Assembly: GCF_000189635.1 (NCBI RefSeq) | Contig: NW_002476448.1 | Span: 1-64,000, forward strand | Source of the DNA: Tetrahymena thermophila SB210 | Lineage: Eukaryota > Ciliophora > Oligohymenophorea > Hymenostomatida > Tetrahymenidae | DNA: 64,000 nucleotides | Direction of reading: 5' to 3' | Shown: positions 1 to 39,278 of the stretch, piece after piece | Layout: each line of letters opens with the position of its first letter | Numbering within the stretch: the first letter of the stretch is position 1 | Position numbers and translations under genes: made by a program | Notes under the pieces: generated by a model | Database searches by the model: none | Told to the model about the DNA's origin: nothing | The model's input: the letters and a program-made list of their open reading frames with translations, nothing else

Positions 1-1730
1 CACAATCCAAAATAAATAAACTGTTTTTTACACAAGGTCAAGTGTCAAATTTGAGAGATTAATGCAATTTGCTAAACCAGAACCTAAGCCTGATGCACCT
101 TCGTCACCAATATTATTGTAACTTTTTAAATATTGAAAAAAATATATCATAAAATAGTTAATTCGAAGGAAAAAATGAAGAAAAAAGATGAAATAATAAG
201 ATTAATTAATTAATAATAAAAGTAAAAAATTTGAAAATAAAAGGATGAGCTAATTAAATTAACAAAGAAAGAACAAAAAAAAGCAAGCGCAATAAAAATA
301 AAAAGAAAAAAGAGCTTTCTTGTTTTTAATTAGTTTTTATAATTAAAAATATCACAATCCAAAACAAATAAACTGTTTTTACTCAAGGTTAAGTGTCAAA
401 TTTGAGAGATTAATGCAATTTGCTAAACCAGAACCTAAGCCTGATGCACCTTTGTCACCAATTGAATTCTTACTTTTTAAATATTGAAGAAAAAATATAT
501 CATAAAATAGTTAATTCGAAGGAAAAAATGAAGAAAAAATATGAAATAATAAGATTAATTAATTAATAATAAAAGTAAAAAATTTGAAAATAAAAGGATG
601 AGCTAATTAAATTAACAAAGAAAGAACAAAAAAAAGCAAGCGCAATAAAAATAAAAAGAAAAAAGAGCTTTCTTGTTTTTAATTAGTTTTTATAATTAAA
701 AATATCACAATCCAAAACAAATAAACTGTTTTTACTAAAGGTTAAGTGTCAAATTTGAGAGATTAATGCAATTTGCTAAACCAGAACCTAAGCCTGATGC
801 ACCAATATAATTCCAACTTTTTAAATATTGAAGAAAAAATATATCATAAAATAGTTAATTCGAAGGAAAAAATGAAGAAAAAAGATGAAATAATAAGATT
901 AATTAATTAATAATAAAAGTAAAAAATTTGAAAATAAAAGGATGAGCTAATTAAATTAACAAAGAAAGAACAAAAAAAAGCAAGCGCAATAAAAATAAAA
1001 AGAAAAAAGAGCTTTCTTGTTTTTAATTAGTTTTTATAATTAAAAATATCACAATCCAAAACAAATAAATTGTTTTTACCTAAGTCCAAGTGTCAAATTT
1101 GAGAGATTAATGCAATTTGCTAAACCAGAACCTAAGCCTGATGCACCTTCGTTATAAATTGAATTAATACTTTTTAAATATTGAAAAAAATATATCATAA
1201 AATAGTTAATTCGAAGGAAAAAATGAAGAAAAAAGATGAAATAATAAGATTAATTAATTAATAATAAAAGTAAAAAATTTGAAAATAAAAGGATGAGCTA
1301 ATTAAATTAACAAAGAAAGAACAAAAAAAAGCAAGCGCAATAAAAATAAAAAGAAAAAAGAGCTTTCTTGTTTTTAATTAGTTTTTATAATTAAAAATAT
1401 CACAATCCAAAACAAATAAACTGTTTTTACTTAAGGTAAAGTTTCAAATTTGAGAGATTAATGCAATTTGCTAAACCAGAACCTAAGCCTGATGCACCTT
1501 CGTCACCAATTTAATTATCACTTTTTAAATATTGAAGAAAAAATATATCATAAAATAGTTAATTCGAAGGAAAAAATGAAGAAAAAAGATGAAATAATAA
1601 GATTAATTAATTAATAATAAAAGTAAAAAATTTGAAAATAAAAGGATGAGCTAATTAAATTAACAAAGAAAGAACAAAAAAAAGCAAGCGCAATAAAAAT
1701 AAAAAGAAAAAAGAGCTTTCTTGTTTTTAT
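1..1730. repeat. Five-unit ~350 bp tandem array carrying LRR exons
   Basis: Five head-to-tail units begin at about 1, 353, 706, 1050 and 1401; spacings are 352, 353, 344 and 351 bp. Most of each unit is AT-rich intron that differs between copies at only a few positions. Each unit also holds one exon read on the minus strand (see the LRR gene entry). Exon differences are confined to about 18 nt at each exon end, while the middle 54 nt is the same in all five copies. The third unit is short because of a 9-nt in-frame loss in its exon. The array runs off the left edge, so the copy number is a minimum. Confidence 0.97.
32..1520 (-). CDS. Leucine-rich repeat gene, one repeat per exon (partial, both ends open)
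   Basis: Read on the minus strand in the ciliate code, exons 1431-1520, 1080-1169, 736-816, 383-472 and 32-121 each encode one ~30-residue LRR with core GASGLGSGLANCINLSNL. Introns (261-263 bp) start GTAAAAAC or GTAAAAAAC, end TTTAAAAAG and split every joint codon after base 2, so exons join in frame in any number. Junction residues give beta-strand ends such as LKLYL-N-INSI, LTLGL-S-WNYI, LTLNL-Y-KNSI and LTLNL-D-YNNI. The consensus LxLxLxxNxIGDEGA resembles ribonuclease-inhibitor/NLR-type LRRs, so the likely role is protein or ligand binding. The 3' end lies beyond the window. I could not place the 5' exon; an ATG at 2139-2141 (minus, MSILKTKLQ) is one candidate. Splicing and repeat type are inferred, but phase, splice motifs and LRR pattern agree in all five copies. 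Confidence 0.85.
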
Positions 1731-2629
1731 TATTAACCATTATTTTGATAAAAAAGAAATATTTTCCTGACTTGTTTTATCTGTATTCAATATCTTATAA
1801 TAAATTATTCTTCAATATGGAATAGACATTAACAACATATACATTATAAAAGATTAAACAGTTAATAACATTAATTTATAACAATAAATAAATTCAATCA
1901 TTTTAATTTATATTTTTTTGGTTATTGCAAATTTGATTTTATTCTTTTTCTTATTAGCTACTTTCTGAATATATATAGACAATTTTAAGGAAACAGAAAT
2001 TGAGATATTAGAGTAAAATATTTTATTTAATCAATAATAGTAATAACTTATCAATTTATAAATAAATAAATTAAAAAATATCTCTTTTTTTAGAAGATTT
2101 TCTTGAGCCTAAACTTGTAACTTAGTTTTTAAGATAGACATTTTTAATTAATAAATTATTTAAACAAACAATTAATCTTTTTATAAAAATAAATTAATAT
2201 CTCAAAAATTCATTTATTTTAGATATAAATTATAATTTCACATAAGTATCAAAAATAGTTAAGTTAAAATTATTTATATTAATAAATATCAAGTTTTTAA
2301 TTAAATTATTGAAAAAATGTTTATTAATAAATAATTTTATTTTTGAAAAGATTTAAAATATAATATTATTTTTATAACTAAAACGTAAACATGCATAGAT
2401 AATTGATTTCAACGAATATTGAATATAATAAGAATGTTATAATTTACCATTAAACTACTTAAACCGAAAGGAAATAATGTAAGTATTTTTATTATATAGG
2501 TTTTATTACATTTAAAAGATTTTTATATATTAATTTTCTATTTTTTATAAAATAATTGTTAGAATATTGCTAAGAAATTAAGACCTTAAGTATCCATCCA
2601 TCCTTCCCATCAATCGATCGATCGATCTA
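1731..2629. other. Noncoding; may hold the unplaced 5' end of the LRR gene
   Basis: Very AT-rich with no convincing exon. A short (ATCG)n run lies at about 2612-2627, beside the stop codon of the FHA gene. The first exon or promoter of the LRR gene should be in here if that gene is functional. Confidence 0.5.
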
Positions 2630-3943
2630 TCAGTGAATAGAAGCTTAAAACATAGTTTGATTGGCTTTTATAATCATCCCATCTACAATTTACTCTTCTT
2701 TTTACAAATATATCCATGTACCGTTTGTAGAGGGAAGAGACCCATCGCCATCTTTAAGAATCCATCCAATATTTGGATTGAATTATATTAAACATTAAAC
2801 TTTAGATATTAATTTATCTTTAAAGCACAAAGAACACTTTTCAGATCTACCTAAAGTGACTTCTTAGTATTCTTTTGGATCTAATTCATAAACCTCTCCA
2901 TTAGAATAGCCTCCATAAAATTAAGCCTTTAAAATGATCTCTTCTTTGTTTTAGAAATATTTCTATGAGAAACTTTTATTTGGATTTTCTCTAGTAATAA
3001 ATTTTATAGTGCATAGTGTAAGTCCAAAGTTAATTAGATCTTGATTGCGTAATATATGAGGAATAGTTGCCTTTTTAAAAACGCCAAATCCTACTCCTAA
3101 GTCAACTATGGAGTAGAAATTGTTTTTAATATCATATTTTATTTGGAAGTGTCGGCCTCTTTATTGCTTTGCTTGGACTGGATCAGTAGGAGGTATTATA
3201 AAATCATTTATAACTAAGGCTTATTTTGTATCTTTTGATATTTTCTTTGCCTTTTTCTTACAACCAAAAAACACATATCCGTCTTTTTCATTTCTCAGTC
3301 CATTCAATAATCCTTAAGCATTTATTGTTAAATAAAGATCTTTTTTTAAATTAGCTGATGCTATGACAGTTAATCTTAAAACTGGTGCGAAGTTTATTAT
3401 TTCTGATAATCTCTTAACACGTTCTGCAAATTGCCTCTATTATTCTTTCATCTCTTCTGTATCATTTACATTTTATTTTTACGTCATCACTTATTGCAAC
3501 TTAGAATTCGACTAGTACTAAAATGGAGAAGTGTAAGTGTGTTTCATAGAATTTGTGTTTAAAGGAGAGAGTGGCTCTTTAGTTGTTGCAGTGTAATTGT
3601 AATTCATAGTTTTATCAAGATTATTTTCTGTCGTTTATTTTTTATTTGAGCTTGAACTGATGTTGCTATTTAAAGAGTAAGTTTGGTAAGCAAATTAATG
3701 ACCTTCTTTTCTCAAAGGTACAGGTGATCTCGATCTTTAAAGCTATTCCCTTGTAATTTAATTATAATCATCATATTCTGTTTCTAACTAACGATAAGTG
3801 CGAGGATGATACTCTGAATTTTGCAAATGATTAATATGATAAGGATAGAAATTAGAAGGGAGGTAAGTTTCTGTTTAATTCCTTTCATATACATCTTAAA
3901 ATGAATCAGCACCACAAATATTTTAACTTGATGAAGTACCCAT
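2630..3943 (-). CDS. FHA-domain protein
   Basis: Single exon, 437 residues, ATG at 3943 and TGA at 2630-2632. The C-terminal ~76 residues form a clear forkhead-associated domain: VTLGRS at about 362-367, then SKVQC, GWILKDGDGS and the STNGTW motif near the end. In FHA domains the Arg-Ser of GRS and the Asn of NGT bind phosphothreonine. A conserved-looking region (residues about 220-340) precedes it and contains IVDLGVGFGVF, possibly a degenerate second FHA fold. The N-terminal ~150 residues are low-complexity, rich in N, S, T and Q. The role is probably phosphothreonine-dependent docking; the partner is unknown. The gene lies 758 bp downstream of the Aurora-like kinase on the same strand, a suggestive but unproven pairing. 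Confidence 0.85.
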
Positions 3944-4701
3944 ATTAATTTACTGTAACCTTTCTTAACTAGAATTACGCTATTTTACTATAATTACTTA
4001 CTTAATATTTTTCTGATTTGTTATCAGTTTGAAAAGTAAAATAAGTGAATCAATCAATCAATTAATTAACTAATAAACTTAATTGATATTTAATAATTGC
4101 AGTAATTGTTAGTAAAATAGTCAAATTTAGAGTATCCATCAATTCTTTTATTAAAGTGTCAAACCATTTATACTGAACCTAATTATTTAAATAAAAAATT
4201 TAATAATAAATTATTATTTTTGTTAAAAACTTTAACACTCTCAAAACAAAATATATTTATTACATATTTTAACTGACTTGATTATTTTTTTAAAAGCATC
4301 AAATAAAGTATTTTATTTTAGTTTACTATTAAACCATGAAGAGCTATTATTTAAATTTAGAAAGTATGATCCGTTTATGTTTTAATTTATTTAGAAAAAG
4401 GAATGAATGAAATTATAAGTCAATTCTATCAGAAAAACAAAGATGAAAATATAAATTAAAAATAAAGGAAAACATTAAAACAATAAGTTATAATTTAGTT
4501 ATTTGATATATTAAAAATTGTATATAGTTTATTATATATATTTTCAGATAGATTTTAACTATTTTTTAAATCAACTAGCTGCCTGCCTGCATGTCATTCA
4601 TTTTAAACAATTAATTAATTGTTGAGCTTTCTATCAAAATACAGTCATATAAAGATTATCTTTATTTAAATAGAAAAAGAAATTTAAAAAAAAATGAATT
4701 T
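3944..4701. other. Intergenic
   Basis: AT-rich spacer between two minus-strand genes. It should contain the FHA gene promoter and the kinase 3' UTR. No ORF or repeat of note. Confidence 0.6.
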
Positions 4702-12026: not shown

Positions 12027-12099
12027 TCCCTCATAGTCTAGCTGGTTAGGATACAAGGTTCTCACCCTTGAGACCCGGGTTCAAGTCCCGGTGGGGGAG
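12027..12099 (+). tRNA. tRNA-Glu (CTC)
   Basis: A full cloverleaf can be drawn. Acceptor TCCCTCA pairs with TGGGGGA (two G-U or G-T type pairs tolerated). The D-arm contains AGTCTAGCTGGTTAGGA. The anticodon stem CAAGG/CCTTG encloses loop TTCTCAC with anticodon CTC, and the T-arm is CCCGGGTTCAAGTCCCGG. Internal box A and box B fit RNA polymerase III. No CCA is encoded, as expected in a eukaryote. It decodes GAG. It is not one of the ciliate suppressor-type tRNA-Gln genes that read TAA/TAG. Confidence 0.96.
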
Positions 12100-23083: not shown

Positions 23084-26000
23084 AATTGATATATTGTGTA
23101 TTTCTTACCTATTTTAATCAATCAGTAATTGTCTATTAATCAAATTTTCAATTAATTGAAATAATTATCAAAGTATTATTTTACCGCTTTACTTTTTCAA
23201 TTTTTTTTCTTTATCAGTTTCTAACAAATAATGCAAATATTTATAAAAGCACATAATAAATAAAGAAAAACTTAACAAATTAACAAATAAAATAATAAAA
23301 AACTTAGATAGATAGATAAATATAAAGATAAAAATCACTAAAATAGTTGCTAACTAACTAATAACTAACAAACAAATTTATTTCAAAGTAACAAAAGTAA
23401 ATAAAAGATAAATAAATTAACAAATAGCTAACTAGCTAGATAACAATCAATCAATCAATCTATCTATCTATTCATATGATTTTATTTTGTATTTAAATGT
23501 TTTATACTAAAAACATTCTAAATATTTTTGTATGATGATACATTTCTAAATAATATGGTCAACAATGGCATATTTTATAAGATTAAAGCAAAAATTTATT
23601 ATTTGTTTTTAGTACTCAAAAGAGTTAAGCATAGAATTGGTTTGGTTTTTCTAATAGGGTACTTCTCAGGAAATTAATTAGAAGTATATATATTAAAAAG
23701 TGCATTAATTTTTCTTACTTTTAATTATTTTGTCAGTCAATTTTATCTATTTTTAATTATGATTCCCTCCTTCCTCACATATTTTTCAACCTAATTAATT
23801 GTATTACTATCTTTAAAACAAAATATAAATTCTTAGCAAAGCTATAACTAAGATAAGTAAATCAACATATTGCTAATTTTTTAAAAAGATGCAAATTAAT
23901 TTTATACTTTTCATAAAATAAATAAACAAAAATACTTCTTATTACAAAAAATTAATTTTTAAATTGTTAAAAATAAATAAAAGTTTGGTCATTAATTGTT
24001 ATTTATTTTTCTTATTTCAACTACCATTTAATCAAACTAATTATTTTTCTAAAATTTTGAAAAAATCAATAAAATTCTTACTTAATTTTAATTCAAAATC
24101 AAAAATTTAGCTTTAAAATTATTTTTAAATTTTGCCAAACAGATTGCAATTAACACTTGTCAAAATTTTAGAAGCCTTTCACTTTTTAAAATATCTCTTT
24201 AAAAATTTGATATAAAATCAGATTACACTCACATTGATCTATCAACACTTGTGAATAGATTATCTAAAAAAATAATCTTCACTTATTCAAATTTTTACAC
24301 ATGGTCTCAAAATATTTATCCTATTTTGCAATAATTTTTGATTTTATAAACACAAAATTTTATTTATGCAGTACAAATTTACTAAAAGTTCAACAAATTT
24401 TAATTTTTATCCTATAAAAATAATATTTTAGCCTTTAATTGATTCATTAGCTTGCTTGCTATTTATCCTTTACTTATTTTTTATTAGCAAAATAAAAATT
24501 ATATGGAAAATTAATAGCCTATTTTAAACAAAAAAAATAAACGTTTATAAAATAAAATTAATTTTCCTACTAAAATAAATTAAAAAAATTTTAATCGAAT
24601 AATAAATAAAATTAATTTTATTAAATTCTATCTTTAAATATTAATAGAATATTTGCTATTAATTTTCAAATATTTATAATCTATTTTAAAATATTTTTAT
24701 TCATTTTTAAATATTTTATATTTATTTTAAGAAAGATTTTCAATTAATTACAACGAATTAATAATTATTTCGAAAATGATTTAATTAATTTTAACTAATT
24801 AAAAATTATTTTTATAAATCATCTATAAAAATTTAATTTATTTAAAGTAGAATTTGTTAATATCTTTAATTAAATAGAATAATTTTGTTATCTCTAACTT
24901 AAAATGAAAATAAAAAAGGTACTCATTTGAAAGGTTTGATACTTTTTAAATGAATATACAAAAATTATTTTAAGATTCTTATTATATAAATTTAAAAAAA
25001 TAGTAAAATTAAATATTTATTTTATTATAACTTTAACTAATTATACAAGTTTATGTGTTTAATTTTATGAATGATAAAAAAAAGAAAACAATAATTTTTT
25101 AAATTTTTAATTTTTTTAAATCACTTTAAAAATAAATAGAAGCATGTTAAATTAATTGATTACATTTGTTAGCTGAAAATTTTATTTGAATTTATACAAA
25201 TAAATTTGAATGGTAATATCTCAAAAATAAGAAGGATTTTTAGTTCAATATTTTATATTTAATTTGTAAAATTAGGCTATCTAATTAGAAGGGATTAACA
25301 TTTTTACACTTTTATTAAAATATTTAGGATTTTAATAATATTTTGATCATAGAAATATCATTTTTTATGAATTGAAATATCTCAAAAATAAGAAGGATTT
25401 TTAGTTCAATATTTTATATTTAATTTGTAAAATTAGGCTATCTAATTAGAAGGGATTAGCATTTTTATACTTTTATTAAAATATTTAGGACTTTAAAAAT
25501 ATTTTGATCATAGAAATATCATTTTAAGATTTATGTTTCATAATAATATTTAAATTCATTTCAAAATATTTTTGTTTCATATTTAACTAAGGCTAAAATC
25601 TAATTGGCAAGCTAGCTTTTTACTTTGATTATTAATGTGTTCAACCAACTGTAAATAATAACTTTACTGATATAAAAATCTAAATATAAATTAATAAATC
25701 TTATACTTAAATATAATTAGTATCTCTTTTTTTGTATTTTCTCTTAATATTTGTCTTTGAATAGAAATTAGAATGTTTGAATTGCATGTTTGAGCACTGT
25801 TTTATTTTATCAGAGATATAATTACTATTTTAAATATTTTAAAGGTAGAATTTGATGCTAAACTTTGATATTTATAAATGATTTTTTTAGTTTAAATCTC
25901 ATTTTTTAAAATTCTTACTATTAAATAAAAGTGTTAAATATAAATTCTTGACTCACTTTTAACAATGCTTTTAATATTAAGAAAAAATGTTATTAGGTTT

Positions 26001-35368: not shown

Positions 35369-35827
35369 TCAAGCAATAGGAGCCTTTCCGTTTTCGGCCT
35401 TGAATTGTTCAACATGGTTAATATAGTTAACGAAATGCTTGACTTTGTTGAGGACAGGGATGGTTTCAGCAGAAATAACGTAACCAAGATCTTCTTCAAC
35501 TTGCATGGCTAATTCAATAGAGTCGAACTCATCCAAACCGTGGTCTTGTAAGACAGAGTTGATATTCAAACCTTATTTATTAGTAGTTCTGAAATAGCCT
35601 CTGACTAATTTGAGGACATACTATTCAATATCTTCTTATTTCTTAAGAGTAAGTTGGTTTCTGTTGACGATTTAACCTTCAACATACTAAGTTAAATCTC
35701 TCTTGGCACCAGCTTATTGCTATTTCTTGGAAACCTAAACTTCGTTCTTAGCAGCAGCGAAGTTGTAAAAGGTTTTTTGGCTCAATTTGGAAGGCTTGGT
35801 AACAAGGCTTAAAATATTTCTGAACAT
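35369..35827 (-). CDS. Mitochondrial acyl carrier protein
   Basis: Single exon, 152 residues. The N-terminus MFRNILSLVTKPSKLSQKTF is basic, Ser/Thr-rich and free of acids, as expected of a mitochondrial presequence. The ACP fold is at about residues 62-150: helix KKQEDIEQYVLKLVRGYF, then INSVLQDHGLDEFDSIEL with the phosphopantetheine serine at S103 in D-S-I-E (usually D-S-L), followed by the acidic helix ELAMQVEEDLG. In mitochondria ACP carries acyl chains for type II fatty-acid and lipoate synthesis and is a subunit of complex I and of the Fe-S LYR machinery. A roughly 35-residue Q/K-rich linker between presequence and ACP domain is longer than usual. Codon use suggests a well-expressed gene. 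Confidence 0.93.
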
Positions 35828-37544
35828 TCCTTTATATCCTTTTCTTTTTACTTCTTTGAATTCTTCTTATTCTTTTTTATTTAATATTATTTTTACTCTT
35901 CAAATCATGAGAATAATCATTCGCTCACTCTCTGCTGCTATCAAATATTAAATAAAGAAAAATGAACTAATCAATAAATTATTAAATAAATAAATAAACA
36001 AACAATAATTTTAATCATTATCAAGCAAGCAAGCAAACTCTTTCCATTAAGAAAGATATATGCAAAAAAAAAAGAAAGCTTTTTCTTTCCATTCTTTTTT
36101 GCTAATCTTTTATTACGAATATCCATCTTTTTATCTAATTATTAAAATGCATAAATCTTTCGTACCAATTTTCATTTTCTTTCTTCTTTTTGCATGGAAA
36201 TTCTTTTGCTTTTCATTCATTAATTTTTTTAGTTGCTTTTTAAACATAAAACAAAAGAAAAGCAAATCTTGATTTAATTTTTTTTTAATGCCTATCCTCA
36301 TTTTTTGTTCATTTACTTAAAATTTTAAATGAAACTGAGTTAATAAATATATTTATTTTTAATACTTAATATAAAAATTAAAAATTATTTTTTATTAAAA
36401 AATAATAGCTTTTTTCAATTAATTTACTACAATCTTATTTTTAACTTAATTTGTCCTATTAAAATAGTATTTAGCTATTTTTCATTTATTTTATTAATTA
36501 AATAAATTAAGTAGTTAATTTTTATTGAATATTTCATCCTCATTAAAATCTTTTATTTTATTTGGTTTAGTAAAAAGTTATTTAATAAATTTTAATCTCA
36601 AGGTTTAACTAAAGGCATAATAATTTATAGTATTATGAATTATATTTTGAATTTCATAAGCTTATTATTGTTTTTTTATTTATTATTAGTTAATTATTTA
36701 TTGTAGATAACTTCAATAGATTATGATTATGAATTATAATATATTTTGTTGTAATTAATTAATATTATTTAATATTTTACTTTAAATTATTATGATAATA
36801 ATATGTTTTTTATAATTTTTTTATTATAGATATTTGAATATTTTGCTTTCAAATTAAATGATGCATAAGAAAATAAGATAATGTAATTTTTAATTTTTTA
36901 TTTTTAGATTTAAAATAAAACTTAATTGATATTTTTTATATTTTTTCATATAATGGTTATTTATGAGAGTAAAATAGTATTTATATTTTAAATTAAATGA
37001 CTTAGAAAGATAATTTTGTTTTGAAATAAAAAATAAATAATGAAATAAATAAATAAAAACTGGATTTTTGGTACAATTTAATTAGAATATCAAATTTAGA
37101 AGTAAAAAAATTAAATACAAATATTTGAGTTTATAAATTTAGAAGAATAAAATAGACATATAGTTTTATCTTGTAGAGTTTATAATACATAAAATAGCTT
37201 TTTATTATATTTATAATCAAAAATGTCTTTTATATAAATTAAAATTAATTAAATTTAATTTAATGTTAAAATTCATTATCTTTATAAATTTTAAAGAGAG
37301 ATATTTCCTGACTATTATTAGAATTATCAATAATATTTTTTACATTTAAATGTAGCCAAATAAATATAGTTTATAATGTTAGTTATTTTTAGTAATATTT
37401 TTAAAATAATTTATTTAAATTAATTACCTGTAATTTAATGAAATTTTTTAATTTAAGTTTCTAAATATTTCAAATTATTATTTTGAGTGAAGCTTAAATA
37501 AACATTATTCAAATTGGTAAGTTTCTAAAGAGGCTAATTTAAAA
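35828..37544. other. Intergenic, ~1.7 kb
   Basis: AT-rich; a Phe/Lys-rich frame at 36060-36272 is judged chance. The ACP promoter should lie just above 35828. Confidence 0.5.
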
Positions 37545-37941: not shown

Positions 37942-38014
37942 TCCCCTATAGTCTAGCAGGTTAGGATAGAAGGTTTTCACCCTTCAGACCCGGGTTCAAG
38001 TCCCGGTGGGGGAA
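37942..38014 (+). tRNA. tRNA-Glu (TTC)
   Basis: The cloverleaf is complete: acceptor TCCCCTA with TGGGGGA, D-arm AGTCTAGCAGGTTAGGA, anticodon stem GAAGG/CCTTC around loop TTTTCAC (anticodon TTC), T-arm CCCGGGTTCAAGTCCCGG. It decodes GAA. It differs from the CTC isoacceptor at 12027 in only a few positions, including compensatory changes at one anticodon-stem pair. No CCA is encoded. Confidence 0.96.
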
Positions 38015-38169: not shown

Positions 38170-39278
38170 TCAATCAGGCAATATATATTTTGTTCTGAAA
38201 ATAAAAGTTTGTTCTTTCAATTTTAGATTTATTTCACCAATCTCTTTGATTTTTTTACAATTTGAGTTAATTTTTTATCTTTTTAACTTTAAAAAAATAA
38301 GTTATTCATATTTTTGTAAATTGAATAAAAATACTTCAAAAGCAATCTTATCGAATAAATTTAGTTGCAACTTTATAGAACTTTGCACATAGAAAAGTAT
38401 CCTTCAAAATCAATTTTATTACAGCTAAAAATAAAATATATTTATAGATCATTTTAAAATTTGTCTAATTAATTTACAATAACTCAAGAGTGTAAGATTT
38501 TAAGTTCTTACATTATGAAATTGAAGTAGATAACTCCAAAGCCCCTTCATTATTAATTTCGTTGCATCTATTTGATCGAATTATTCAGTTAAAATATAAA
38601 ATTTTCAAATAATTACATTAAATCTAGACACAAATTTTTCAAATTATAGCAGAGAGGCAAGCACTAGCTAAAATTTTAAATATCTTCAGATTTAATTTAA
38701 TTTGATCTTTTATATTTAATAAGTATTAAATTTTTTTTTTAATTTAAATAAAAACAACTCCAAATTTATTGAAAATTGATTAAGCAATTTGCATCCTACA
38801 ATTGCTTTAGCTATTTCATCTAAACCCTCTTTGCCAATTTAGTTAAATCTTAAATATAAAATAAAAAATAATTTAATTTTTGATAATTTTAATTTTAAGC
38901 ACTGCAAATTGATTTAGAGTTATATAATCTGAAGACATTGATGCAGTTTCTAGCTAAGTTATAGAACTCCTTAACTTTAAATCCATTTATATCTTTCAAT
39001 TATATTTTAAAATAATATATAATTAAGTTTATATTATGATCTAATTTTGTTTAAATAATTTAAAATCATTGAAAAAAAATAAAAATAATTGAACAAATAT
39101 TTTTAAAAAAATATTTATTTCTAGAAGATTAATTCATAAACTTCTTACTATAAGTCTATTTAAATATTTTTGATGTTAGAAACTTCTGATTCTATAAACT
39201 TTAAATATAAAAGATAATATAAATGAAATTATTTAAATTAATTGAAAGTTTTACTTGTTGAAGGTTTTCAAAAAACAT
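38170..39278 (-). CDS. Leucine-rich repeat protein, one LRR per 90-nt exon (complete)
   Basis: Eight exons: 39278-39255, 39198-39149, 38992-38903, 38848-38759, 38706-38617, 38567-38478, 38424-38335, 38278-38170. They sum to 211 codons including stop, 210 residues. Exons 3-7 are each exactly 90 nt, start and end in phase 2, and encode one 30-residue LRR apiece. Examples are FNQIGKEGLDEIAKAIVGCK, CNEINNEGALELSTSISQCK and CNKIDFEGYFSMCKVLQSCN, each ending in a strand like LKSYTLEL or IYSIRLLL. The last exon holds a decayed repeat and a short tail (RTKYILPD). There is no signal peptide or other domain, so it is presumably an intracellular binding scaffold. Layout and phase match the array at 1-1730, but repeats here are highly diverged and most introns are only 49-56 bp. 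One donor (GTTGTT, at 38758) is weak. Confidence 0.75.

What the first reader, a model, noticed from the sequence alone, without database searches (positions are those of the whole stretch)
32..1520. Hypervariable LRR surface encoded in an otherwise near-identical tandem array
Seen directly: five exons and their introns are nearly identical, yet each exon differs at the codons marked x in LxLxLxxNxI, plus the following turn. Read in order, the residues after the third Leu of the strand are N, S, Y, D; the next position is I, W, K, Y; the position between structural Asn and Ile is S, Y, S, N. The Asn and Ile codons themselves and the 54-nt exon core do not change. In LRR proteins these x positions line the concave binding face. 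Substitution limited to binding-face codons, with introns conserved, is the reverse of neutral drift and resembles diversified receptors such as lamprey VLRs or plant NLRs. Rapidly evolving LRR families are, to my recollection, known in Tetrahymena; this codon-level pattern is what deserves attention.
Basis: partly seen in the sequence, partly recalled or inferred. Interest (0 to 1): 0.92.

Follow-up and report, generated by a model that had tools for sequence, protein, structure and literature searches.

The report
Tetrahymena LRR exons with hypervariable binding face
This is a piece of a known, fast-growing family of leucine-rich-repeat genes in a pond ciliate, whose nearly identical repeated exons differ only at, or right beside, the codons expected to touch a binding partner, as diversified recognition proteins do elsewhere.

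Summary
On the minus strand, window 32-1520 holds five LRR exons (four of 90 nt, one of 81 nt) and four phase-2 introns of 261-263 nt. Among five copies, 12 of 15 nucleotide columns vary in the exposed codons (x of LxLxLxxNxI), 4 of 12 in the adjoining turn, 0 of 15 in the interleaved Leu/Asn/Ile codons and 0 of 48 in the exon core; the four introns vary at 2 of 261. No residue is encoded by two different codons.

A neighbouring protein is identical over 152 of 152 residues to ATPTT11, so the host is Tetrahymena thermophila (species of that chain recalled). Exon length, intron phase, intron length and six leucines match the group III '90-bp exon' LRR genes already described there (PMC6564038). 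The family is known; 'concave', 'hypervariable' and 'positive selection' do not occur in that paper's main text.

Best reading: recent unit duplication or homogenisation plus diversifying selection on the predicted concave face; brown-algal LRR-ROCO exons are the nearest analogue. Function, expression and gene ends are undetermined. The lamprey-VLR comparison holds only as analogy.

The parts
1431..1520 (-). LRR exon u5 (90 nt, first in transcript order of those in the window)
   Evidence: AG|...|GT borders, phase 2, table 6 translation DNQIGDEGASGLGSGLANCINLSNLKLYL; TAA read as Gln
1170..1430 (-). intron u5-u4 (261 nt, GC 0.17)
   Evidence: GTAAAAAC...AAAAAG; near-identical to the other three
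1080..1169 (-). LRR exon u4 (90 nt)
   Evidence: translation after junction residue N: INSIYNEGASGLGSGLANCINLSNLTLGL
817..1079 (-). intron u4-u3 (263 nt)
736..816 (-). LRR exon u3 (81 nt; lacks three turn codons, frame kept)
   Evidence: translation after junction residue S: WNYIGASGLGSGLANCINLSNLTLNL
473..735 (-). intron u3-u2 (263 nt)
383..472 (-). LRR exon u2 (90 nt)
   Evidence: translation after junction residue Y: KNSIGDKGASGLGSGLANCINLSNLTLNL
122..382 (-). intron u2-u1 (261 nt)
32..121 (-). LRR exon u1 (90 nt, last one in the window; next intron runs off the window start)
   Evidence: translation after junction residue D: YNNIGDEGASGLGSGLANCINLSNLTLDL; donor GTAAAAAAC intact
1521..1732 (-). 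intron-like sequence upstream of u5, sharing its last ~212 nt with the other introns and then diverging; upstream exon not identified
   Evidence: 213-column match, no mismatch, 2 gaps, to positions 51-261 of intron u5-u4; no convincing first exon by codon-usage scan
1..31 (-). start of the intron after u1, cut by the window edge; differs from the other copies by one substitution and one inserted T

Best explanation
This is part of a Tetrahymena thermophila '90-bp exon' LRR gene of the youngest class (group III). The exon-intron unit of about 350 nt was recently multiplied or homogenised by unequal crossing-over or gene conversion, so introns and structural codons are almost the same in every unit. 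At the same time selection favours amino-acid change at the x positions of LxLxLxxNxI, which should line the concave face of an RI-like LRR solenoid, so every unit offers a different set of side chains to a binding partner. Shown here: anatomy, reading frame, phase, and the codon-level confinement of change. Inferred: concave-face location (motif, and alignment to solved RI-like LRRs), diversifying selection as the cause, and a recognition or binding function.
For: Five exons with intact GT/AG borders, phase 2, one table-6 reading frame. Exposed columns 12 of 15 variable (pairwise difference 0.49); structural Leu/Leu/Leu/Asn/Ile 0 of 15; turn 4 of 12; core 0 of 48; introns 2 of 261 (0.0038) plus a 2-nt indel. 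On the four complete spliced units, exposed pN 0.58 and turn pN 0.29, against pN 0 and pS 0 in the other 21 codon positions. No two copies use different codons for the same residue. If the structural codons were old and free to drift, all five being identical in five copies would have probability 1.5e-9 at the codon usage of eight long reading frames of the window, so the units look young and the exposed codons changed fast. Pfam LRR_6, E 2.5e-8. Of 18 solved sequences matched at E up to 1, the best is an LRR protein (9y6s_8O, E 1.9e-10); 5irm (E 2.7e-5; NOD2, name recalled) aligns L-N-L-D-Y-N-N-I to L-S-L-V-G-N-N-I. Host: 152/152 identity to ATPTT11. Family: PMC6564038 describes 90-bp exons, phase 2, ~257-nt introns, six conserved Leu, ectopic recombination.
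Against: Five related copies from one array are few. The exposed/intron rate ratio from minimum substitution counts is 157 (95% interval 37 to 1392; five exon copies against four introns, which inflates it slightly), more than ordinary positive selection usually gives, so a second process may be involved. The published median Ka/Ks of about 0.4 for LRR genes found in only one or two species is below 1; a gene-wide average could hide a few diversifying codons, but it is not support. In exposed codons pS is 0.26 by the counting method, so pN/pS there is only about 2.2. No first exon was found, so the piece could be a relic. u3 is 81 nt. No transcript or population data, and no structure model of this protein.
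Confidence: 0.7

Rival explanations
1. Old diversity with concerted evolution: the exposed codons are long diverged and merely escaped homogenisation of introns and core, because selection removes units made identical. The same surface is diversified, but the change is not recent.
For: Ectopic recombination and scrambling among 90-bp exons is documented in this species (PMC6564038). The exposed codons are far from each other in every pair of copies (5 to 10 of 15 nt).
Against: Leu, Asn and Ile codons directly beside the variable ones are identical in all five copies; homogenisation tracts would have to be a few nucleotides long and repeated. At codon equilibrium this identity has probability 1.5e-9, unless these codons are themselves constrained.
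Confidence: 0.17
2. A codon- or site-targeted mutational process (retroelement-linked or conversion-based cassette replacement) writes diversity into these positions, in the manner of diversity-generating retroelements.
For: Rate ratio over the intron with a lower bound of 37. The published association of young LRR units with a LINE-like element (PMC6564038 abstract and section 15 part 1).
Against: No clear signature: 14 of 16 variable columns contain an A, which would fit A-targeting, but 21 invariant all-A columns exist in the same exon, including the adjacent AAT, and A is common in this AT-rich sequence. Precise skipping of Leu/Asn/Ile codons is easier by selection than by mutation. No reverse-transcriptase match among the 10 window reading frames given to Pfam, which is not a search of the whole window.
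Confidence: 0.06
3. A relic or pseudogene fragment with relaxed constraint, in which the pattern is a leftover of past selection.
For: No first exon recognised upstream of u5; the upstream intron diverges abruptly; one exon is 81 nt.
Against: Frame, splice borders and structural codons are intact in all five units; the only exon indel is a multiple of three. Relaxed constraint would also scatter changes over the core.
Confidence: 0.07

Closest known systems
Tetrahymena group III 90-bp exon LRR genes (Xiong et al. 2019, PMC6564038; abstract, sections 9, 10, 11 and 27, part 1 of 2 of section 15, and found passages read)
   Same: Same species by ATPTT11 identity; phase-2 introns; 90-nt exons; intron 261-263 against a ~257 peak; six Leu including number 16; unit of about 350 nt
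   Different: Four 90-nt exons and one of 81 nt. The paper reports Ka/Ks below 1 and exon shuffling; 'concave', 'hypervariable' and 'positive selection' have 0 occurrences in its main text. Its logos (S19, S20 Fig) may show the variable positions, but figures are not held
Brown-algal LRR-ROCO exons (PMC11378527, abstract and section 11 read; Zambounis et al. 2012 not held, known only from that paper)
   Same: One LRR per exon, phase 2, exon shuffling, positive selection at sites 14, 16, 18, 19 on the concave side of a repeat ending LxLxxNxL: the same kind of site as here
   Different: 72-bp exons and shorter LRRs in ROC-COR proteins; alternative splicing reported; no ROC-COR seen in the piece here
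PRDM9 zinc-finger minisatellite (PMC8925151 and PMC5120217, found passages read)
   Same: Near-identical tandem units with positive selection at contacting residues and concerted evolution; horizontal dN/dS 2.7 in human PRDM9
   Different: Zinc fingers, DNA ligand, 84-bp unit
Lamprey VLR and plant NLR (recalled)
   Same: LRR solenoid with a diversified concave face
   Different: VLR: somatic assembly of 24-residue LRR cassettes; NLR: NB-ARC protein with LRRs; neither feature seen in the piece here

Membership tests
[quoted passage not shown]
   4 of 5 exons 90 nt, one 81 nt
[quoted passage not shown]
   4 of 4 complete introns
[quoted passage not shown]
   Leu at codons 12, 16, 22, 25, 27, 29 in 5 of 5 exons; compared with the text of PMC6564038, not with its figure
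[quoted passage not shown]
   two, then an 81-nt exon, then two; array cut by the window start
Group III subclass | introns near 257 bp | tested here: met
   261, 263, 263, 261 nt
Group III subclass | masked by one of the eight consensus repeats CRS1-8 | not testable with these tools
   consensus sequences are in supplementary data, for which the session allows no look-ups
Brown-algal LRR-ROCO | 72-bp LRR exons | tested here: not met
   90/81 nt
Brown-algal LRR-ROCO | ROC-COR domains in the same gene | not testable with these tools
   one gene end lies beyond the window, the other was not identified
Lamprey VLR | 24-residue LRR cassettes (recalled) | tested here: not met
   30-residue unit (27 in one copy)
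Lamprey VLR | somatic assembly | not testable with these tools
   needs germline and somatic genomes of one cell line
Plant NLR | NB-ARC domain in the same gene | not testable with these tools
   gene ends not seen; the five-exon piece gives LRR matches only

The most novel reading that the evidence does not exclude
A unicellular predator carries a genome-wide repertoire of LRR proteins whose binding faces are rewritten codon by codon, in this array at a rate with a lower bound of 37 times that of its own introns, by a process that ordinary substitution plus selection does not fully explain (micro-conversion from a cassette pool, or targeted mutation). It would be a protist counterpart of variable receptor systems, for telling bacteria, prey or self apart.
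Probability: 0.12. Interest if true: 0.85.

Novelty: new member of a known kind. Interest (0 to 1): 0.47.

Why it matters
T. thermophila has 1,874 LRR genes, 934 of them in the youngest group (PMC6564038), and the paper that described them leaves their function as hypotheses to be tested. A clean contrast inside each array (exposed codons against interleaved Leu codons and introns) gives a direct genome-wide test of whether they are diversified binders. If so, this would be another case, besides brown algae, where single-LRR phase-2 exons are shuffled and their concave face diversifies.

Tried and rejected
Whole-genome comparison: no genome is held for this window, so the decisive test on all copies could not be run. 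Viral contigs: 10 pattern matches, none a relative. Prokaryote genomes: 9 loci from 94 candidate stretches, all in bacterial records, best segments 31-43% identical; taken as general RI-like LRRs and not analysed further. A-targeted (retroelement-like) mutagenesis: considered and judged unlikely. Mobile-intron reading (identical introns inserted into old exons): rejected because the exon core is also identical. First exon: the codon-usage scan of 1-2640 scored the five exons 14.4-19.4 in frame; between the array and 2550 it gave only 6.1-6.6, the level of out-of-frame shadows of the exons (6.4-9.5); higher scores (9.5-10.7) at 2555-2634 occur in all three frames and so name no exon. Other copies in the window: a profile of the unit found the five exons (45.1-57.0 bits); the next hits were 6.6 bits (38824-38859), 6.0, 5.9 and 5.1 (38501-38566), none significant.

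Literature for a report of site-level selection in Tetrahymena LRR genes: searches (1 of 1 listed; 20 of 65; 25 of 44; 15 of 277; 8 of 8; 1 of 1). The only paper on the evolution of Tetrahymena LRR genes among those listed was PMC6564038; most listings are partial and most subscription journals are not held.

Full report
What is there. The first 1.73 kb of the window is a tandem array with a 353-nt period and 4.9 copies at 95% matches. On the minus strand, read with the ciliate code, each unit holds one LRR exon bounded by AG and GT: u5 1431-1520, u4 1080-1169, u3 736-816, u2 383-472, u1 32-121. Four exons are 90 nt and u3 is 81 nt, lacking three turn codons in frame. The introns are 261, 263, 263 and 261 nt, GC 0.17, and phase 2, so one codon per repeat is split across each junction. 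The spliced frame reads DNQIGDEGASGLGSGLANCINLSNLKLYL-N-INSIYNEG... without a stop; Pfam gives LRR_6 at E 2.5e-8.

Where it is from. A reading frame at window 35369-35899 (minus strand) contains all 152 residues of PDB chain 6ynx_q, named ATPTT11, without a mismatch. That this chain comes from Tetrahymena thermophila ATP synthase is recalled. The long reading frames of the window that use TAA and TAG as Gln fit a ciliate.

The codon-level pattern. Within the 90 exon columns of five copies, 16 vary by substitution and 9 are gapped in u3, two of these 9 also varying among the other copies. I sorted the columns by the LRR motif. Exposed x positions of LxLxLxxNxI: 12 of 15 columns vary, pairwise difference 0.49. 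Interleaved structural Leu, Leu, Leu, Asn, Ile: 0 of 15. Turn GDEG: 4 of 12. Core: 0 of 48. The four complete introns: 2 of 261 ungapped columns, pairwise difference 0.0038, plus one 2-nt indel. A fifth, partial intron upstream of u5 matches one of them over 213 columns with no mismatch and two gaps. The 31 nt of the next intron in the window, after u1, differ by one substitution and one inserted T. Residues after the third Leu are N, S, Y, D at the four junctions (u1 ends in GT, the first two bases of a further junction codon); then D, I, W, K, Y; then invariant Asn; then Q, S, Y, S, N; then invariant Ile.

Is it beyond chance? All 16 substitution columns lie in 27 of 90 columns (P 6e-11). 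Exposed against structural P 1e-5; exposed against intron P 1e-16; third positions only, 3 of 5 exposed against 0 of 21 structural plus core, P 0.004; third positions of exposed against structural codons alone are 3 of 5 against 0 of 5, too few to decide. Minimum substitutions are 18 in 15 exposed nt (five copies) and 2 in 261 intron nt (four copies), a ratio of 157 with a 95% interval of 37 to 1392, slightly inflated by the unequal number of copies.

What that implies. Not neutral drift, since intron and core lie in the same units as the exposed codons and have hardly changed. Not a simple mutational hot region, since Leu, Asn and Ile codons lying between the variable codons never change, not even silently; no residue anywhere in the exons is encoded by two codons. 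With the codon usage of eight long reading frames of the window, five independent old copies free to drift would share all five structural codons with probability 1.5e-9. So the units look recent or homogenised and the exposed codons have changed fast. Diversifying selection with recombination among units is the simplest account. The lower bound of 37-fold is large, and I cannot exclude small conversion tracts from other LRR exons or a targeted process. The counting method, on the four complete spliced units, gives pN 0.58 and pS 0.26 in exposed codons; as no synonymous codon pair exists, that pS comes from pathways between codons that also change residue, and the sample is too small for a site model.

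Structure. The piece matches 18 solved sequences at E up to 1, the best being 9y6s_8O, 'Leucine-rich repeat protein', at E 1.9e-10, and among them 5irm at E 2.7e-5 (rabbit NOD2, recalled). In the latter alignment query LNLDYNNIGDEGA lies against LSLVGNNIGSVGA, with the Tetrahymena unit two residues longer just before. In that fold the x residues of the strand face the concave side (established knowledge of RI-like LRRs). No model of this protein was made.

Known family. Xiong et al. 2019 (PMC6564038; abstract, sections 9, 10, 11 and 27, part 1 of 2 of section 15, and found passages read) describe exactly this kind of gene in ten Tetrahymena species: 90-bp exons, more than 98% of the introns before them in phase 2, ~257-bp introns in the youngest T. 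thermophila group, six conserved leucines, ectopic recombination, and association with a LINE-like element. They give a median Ka/Ks of about 0.4 for LRR genes found in only one or two species, speak of purifying selection, relatively relaxed, and suggest that some of these genes may serve in recognising bacteria. The words concave, hypervariable and positive selection do not occur in the main text. Figures and supplements were not seen.

Nearest mechanism. In brown algae, LRR-ROCO genes have 72-bp phase-2 exons, one LRR each, shuffled and alternatively spliced, with four positively selected sites on the concave side (PMC11378527, abstract and section 11). PRDM9 zinc fingers show the same evolutionary mode, concerted evolution with positive selection on contact residues (PMC8925151, PMC5120217, passages). 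The array here looks like the same mode in a ciliate LRR gene. Lamprey VLR and plant NLR are analogies only.

Verdict. The gene family is already described in this species, while the within-array codon contrast is not stated in the text that I found in print (searches: several with partial listings).

Noticed in passing
window 38400-39000, minus strand: A second, much more diverged LRR-like stretch in several short frames (for example GKEGLDEIAKAIVGCKLLNQFSINL and NEGALELSTSISQCKNLKSYTLEL, read by eye from the sequence), probably an older LRR gene or remnant; it barely scores with the array profile (6.6 and 5.1 bits, not significant), and Pfam finds no LRR in the two reading frames tried.
   Followed up: partly
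window 35369-35899, minus strand: Reading frame for a protein identical over 152 of 152 residues to PDB chain 6ynx_q (ATPTT11), an acyl-carrier-like protein; it points to the species.
   Followed up: yes
window 2633-4057, minus strand: FHA-domain reading frame (Pfam E 3.8e-13) directly upstream of the LRR array on the same strand; about 0.9 kb between it and the array holds no recognised exon.
   Followed up: partly
window 25207-25525: A 161-nt unit repeated twice in tandem at 96% match, unexplained.
   Followed up: no
window 12027-12099 and 37942-38014: Two tRNA-Glu genes, anticodons CTC and TTC.
   Followed up: no
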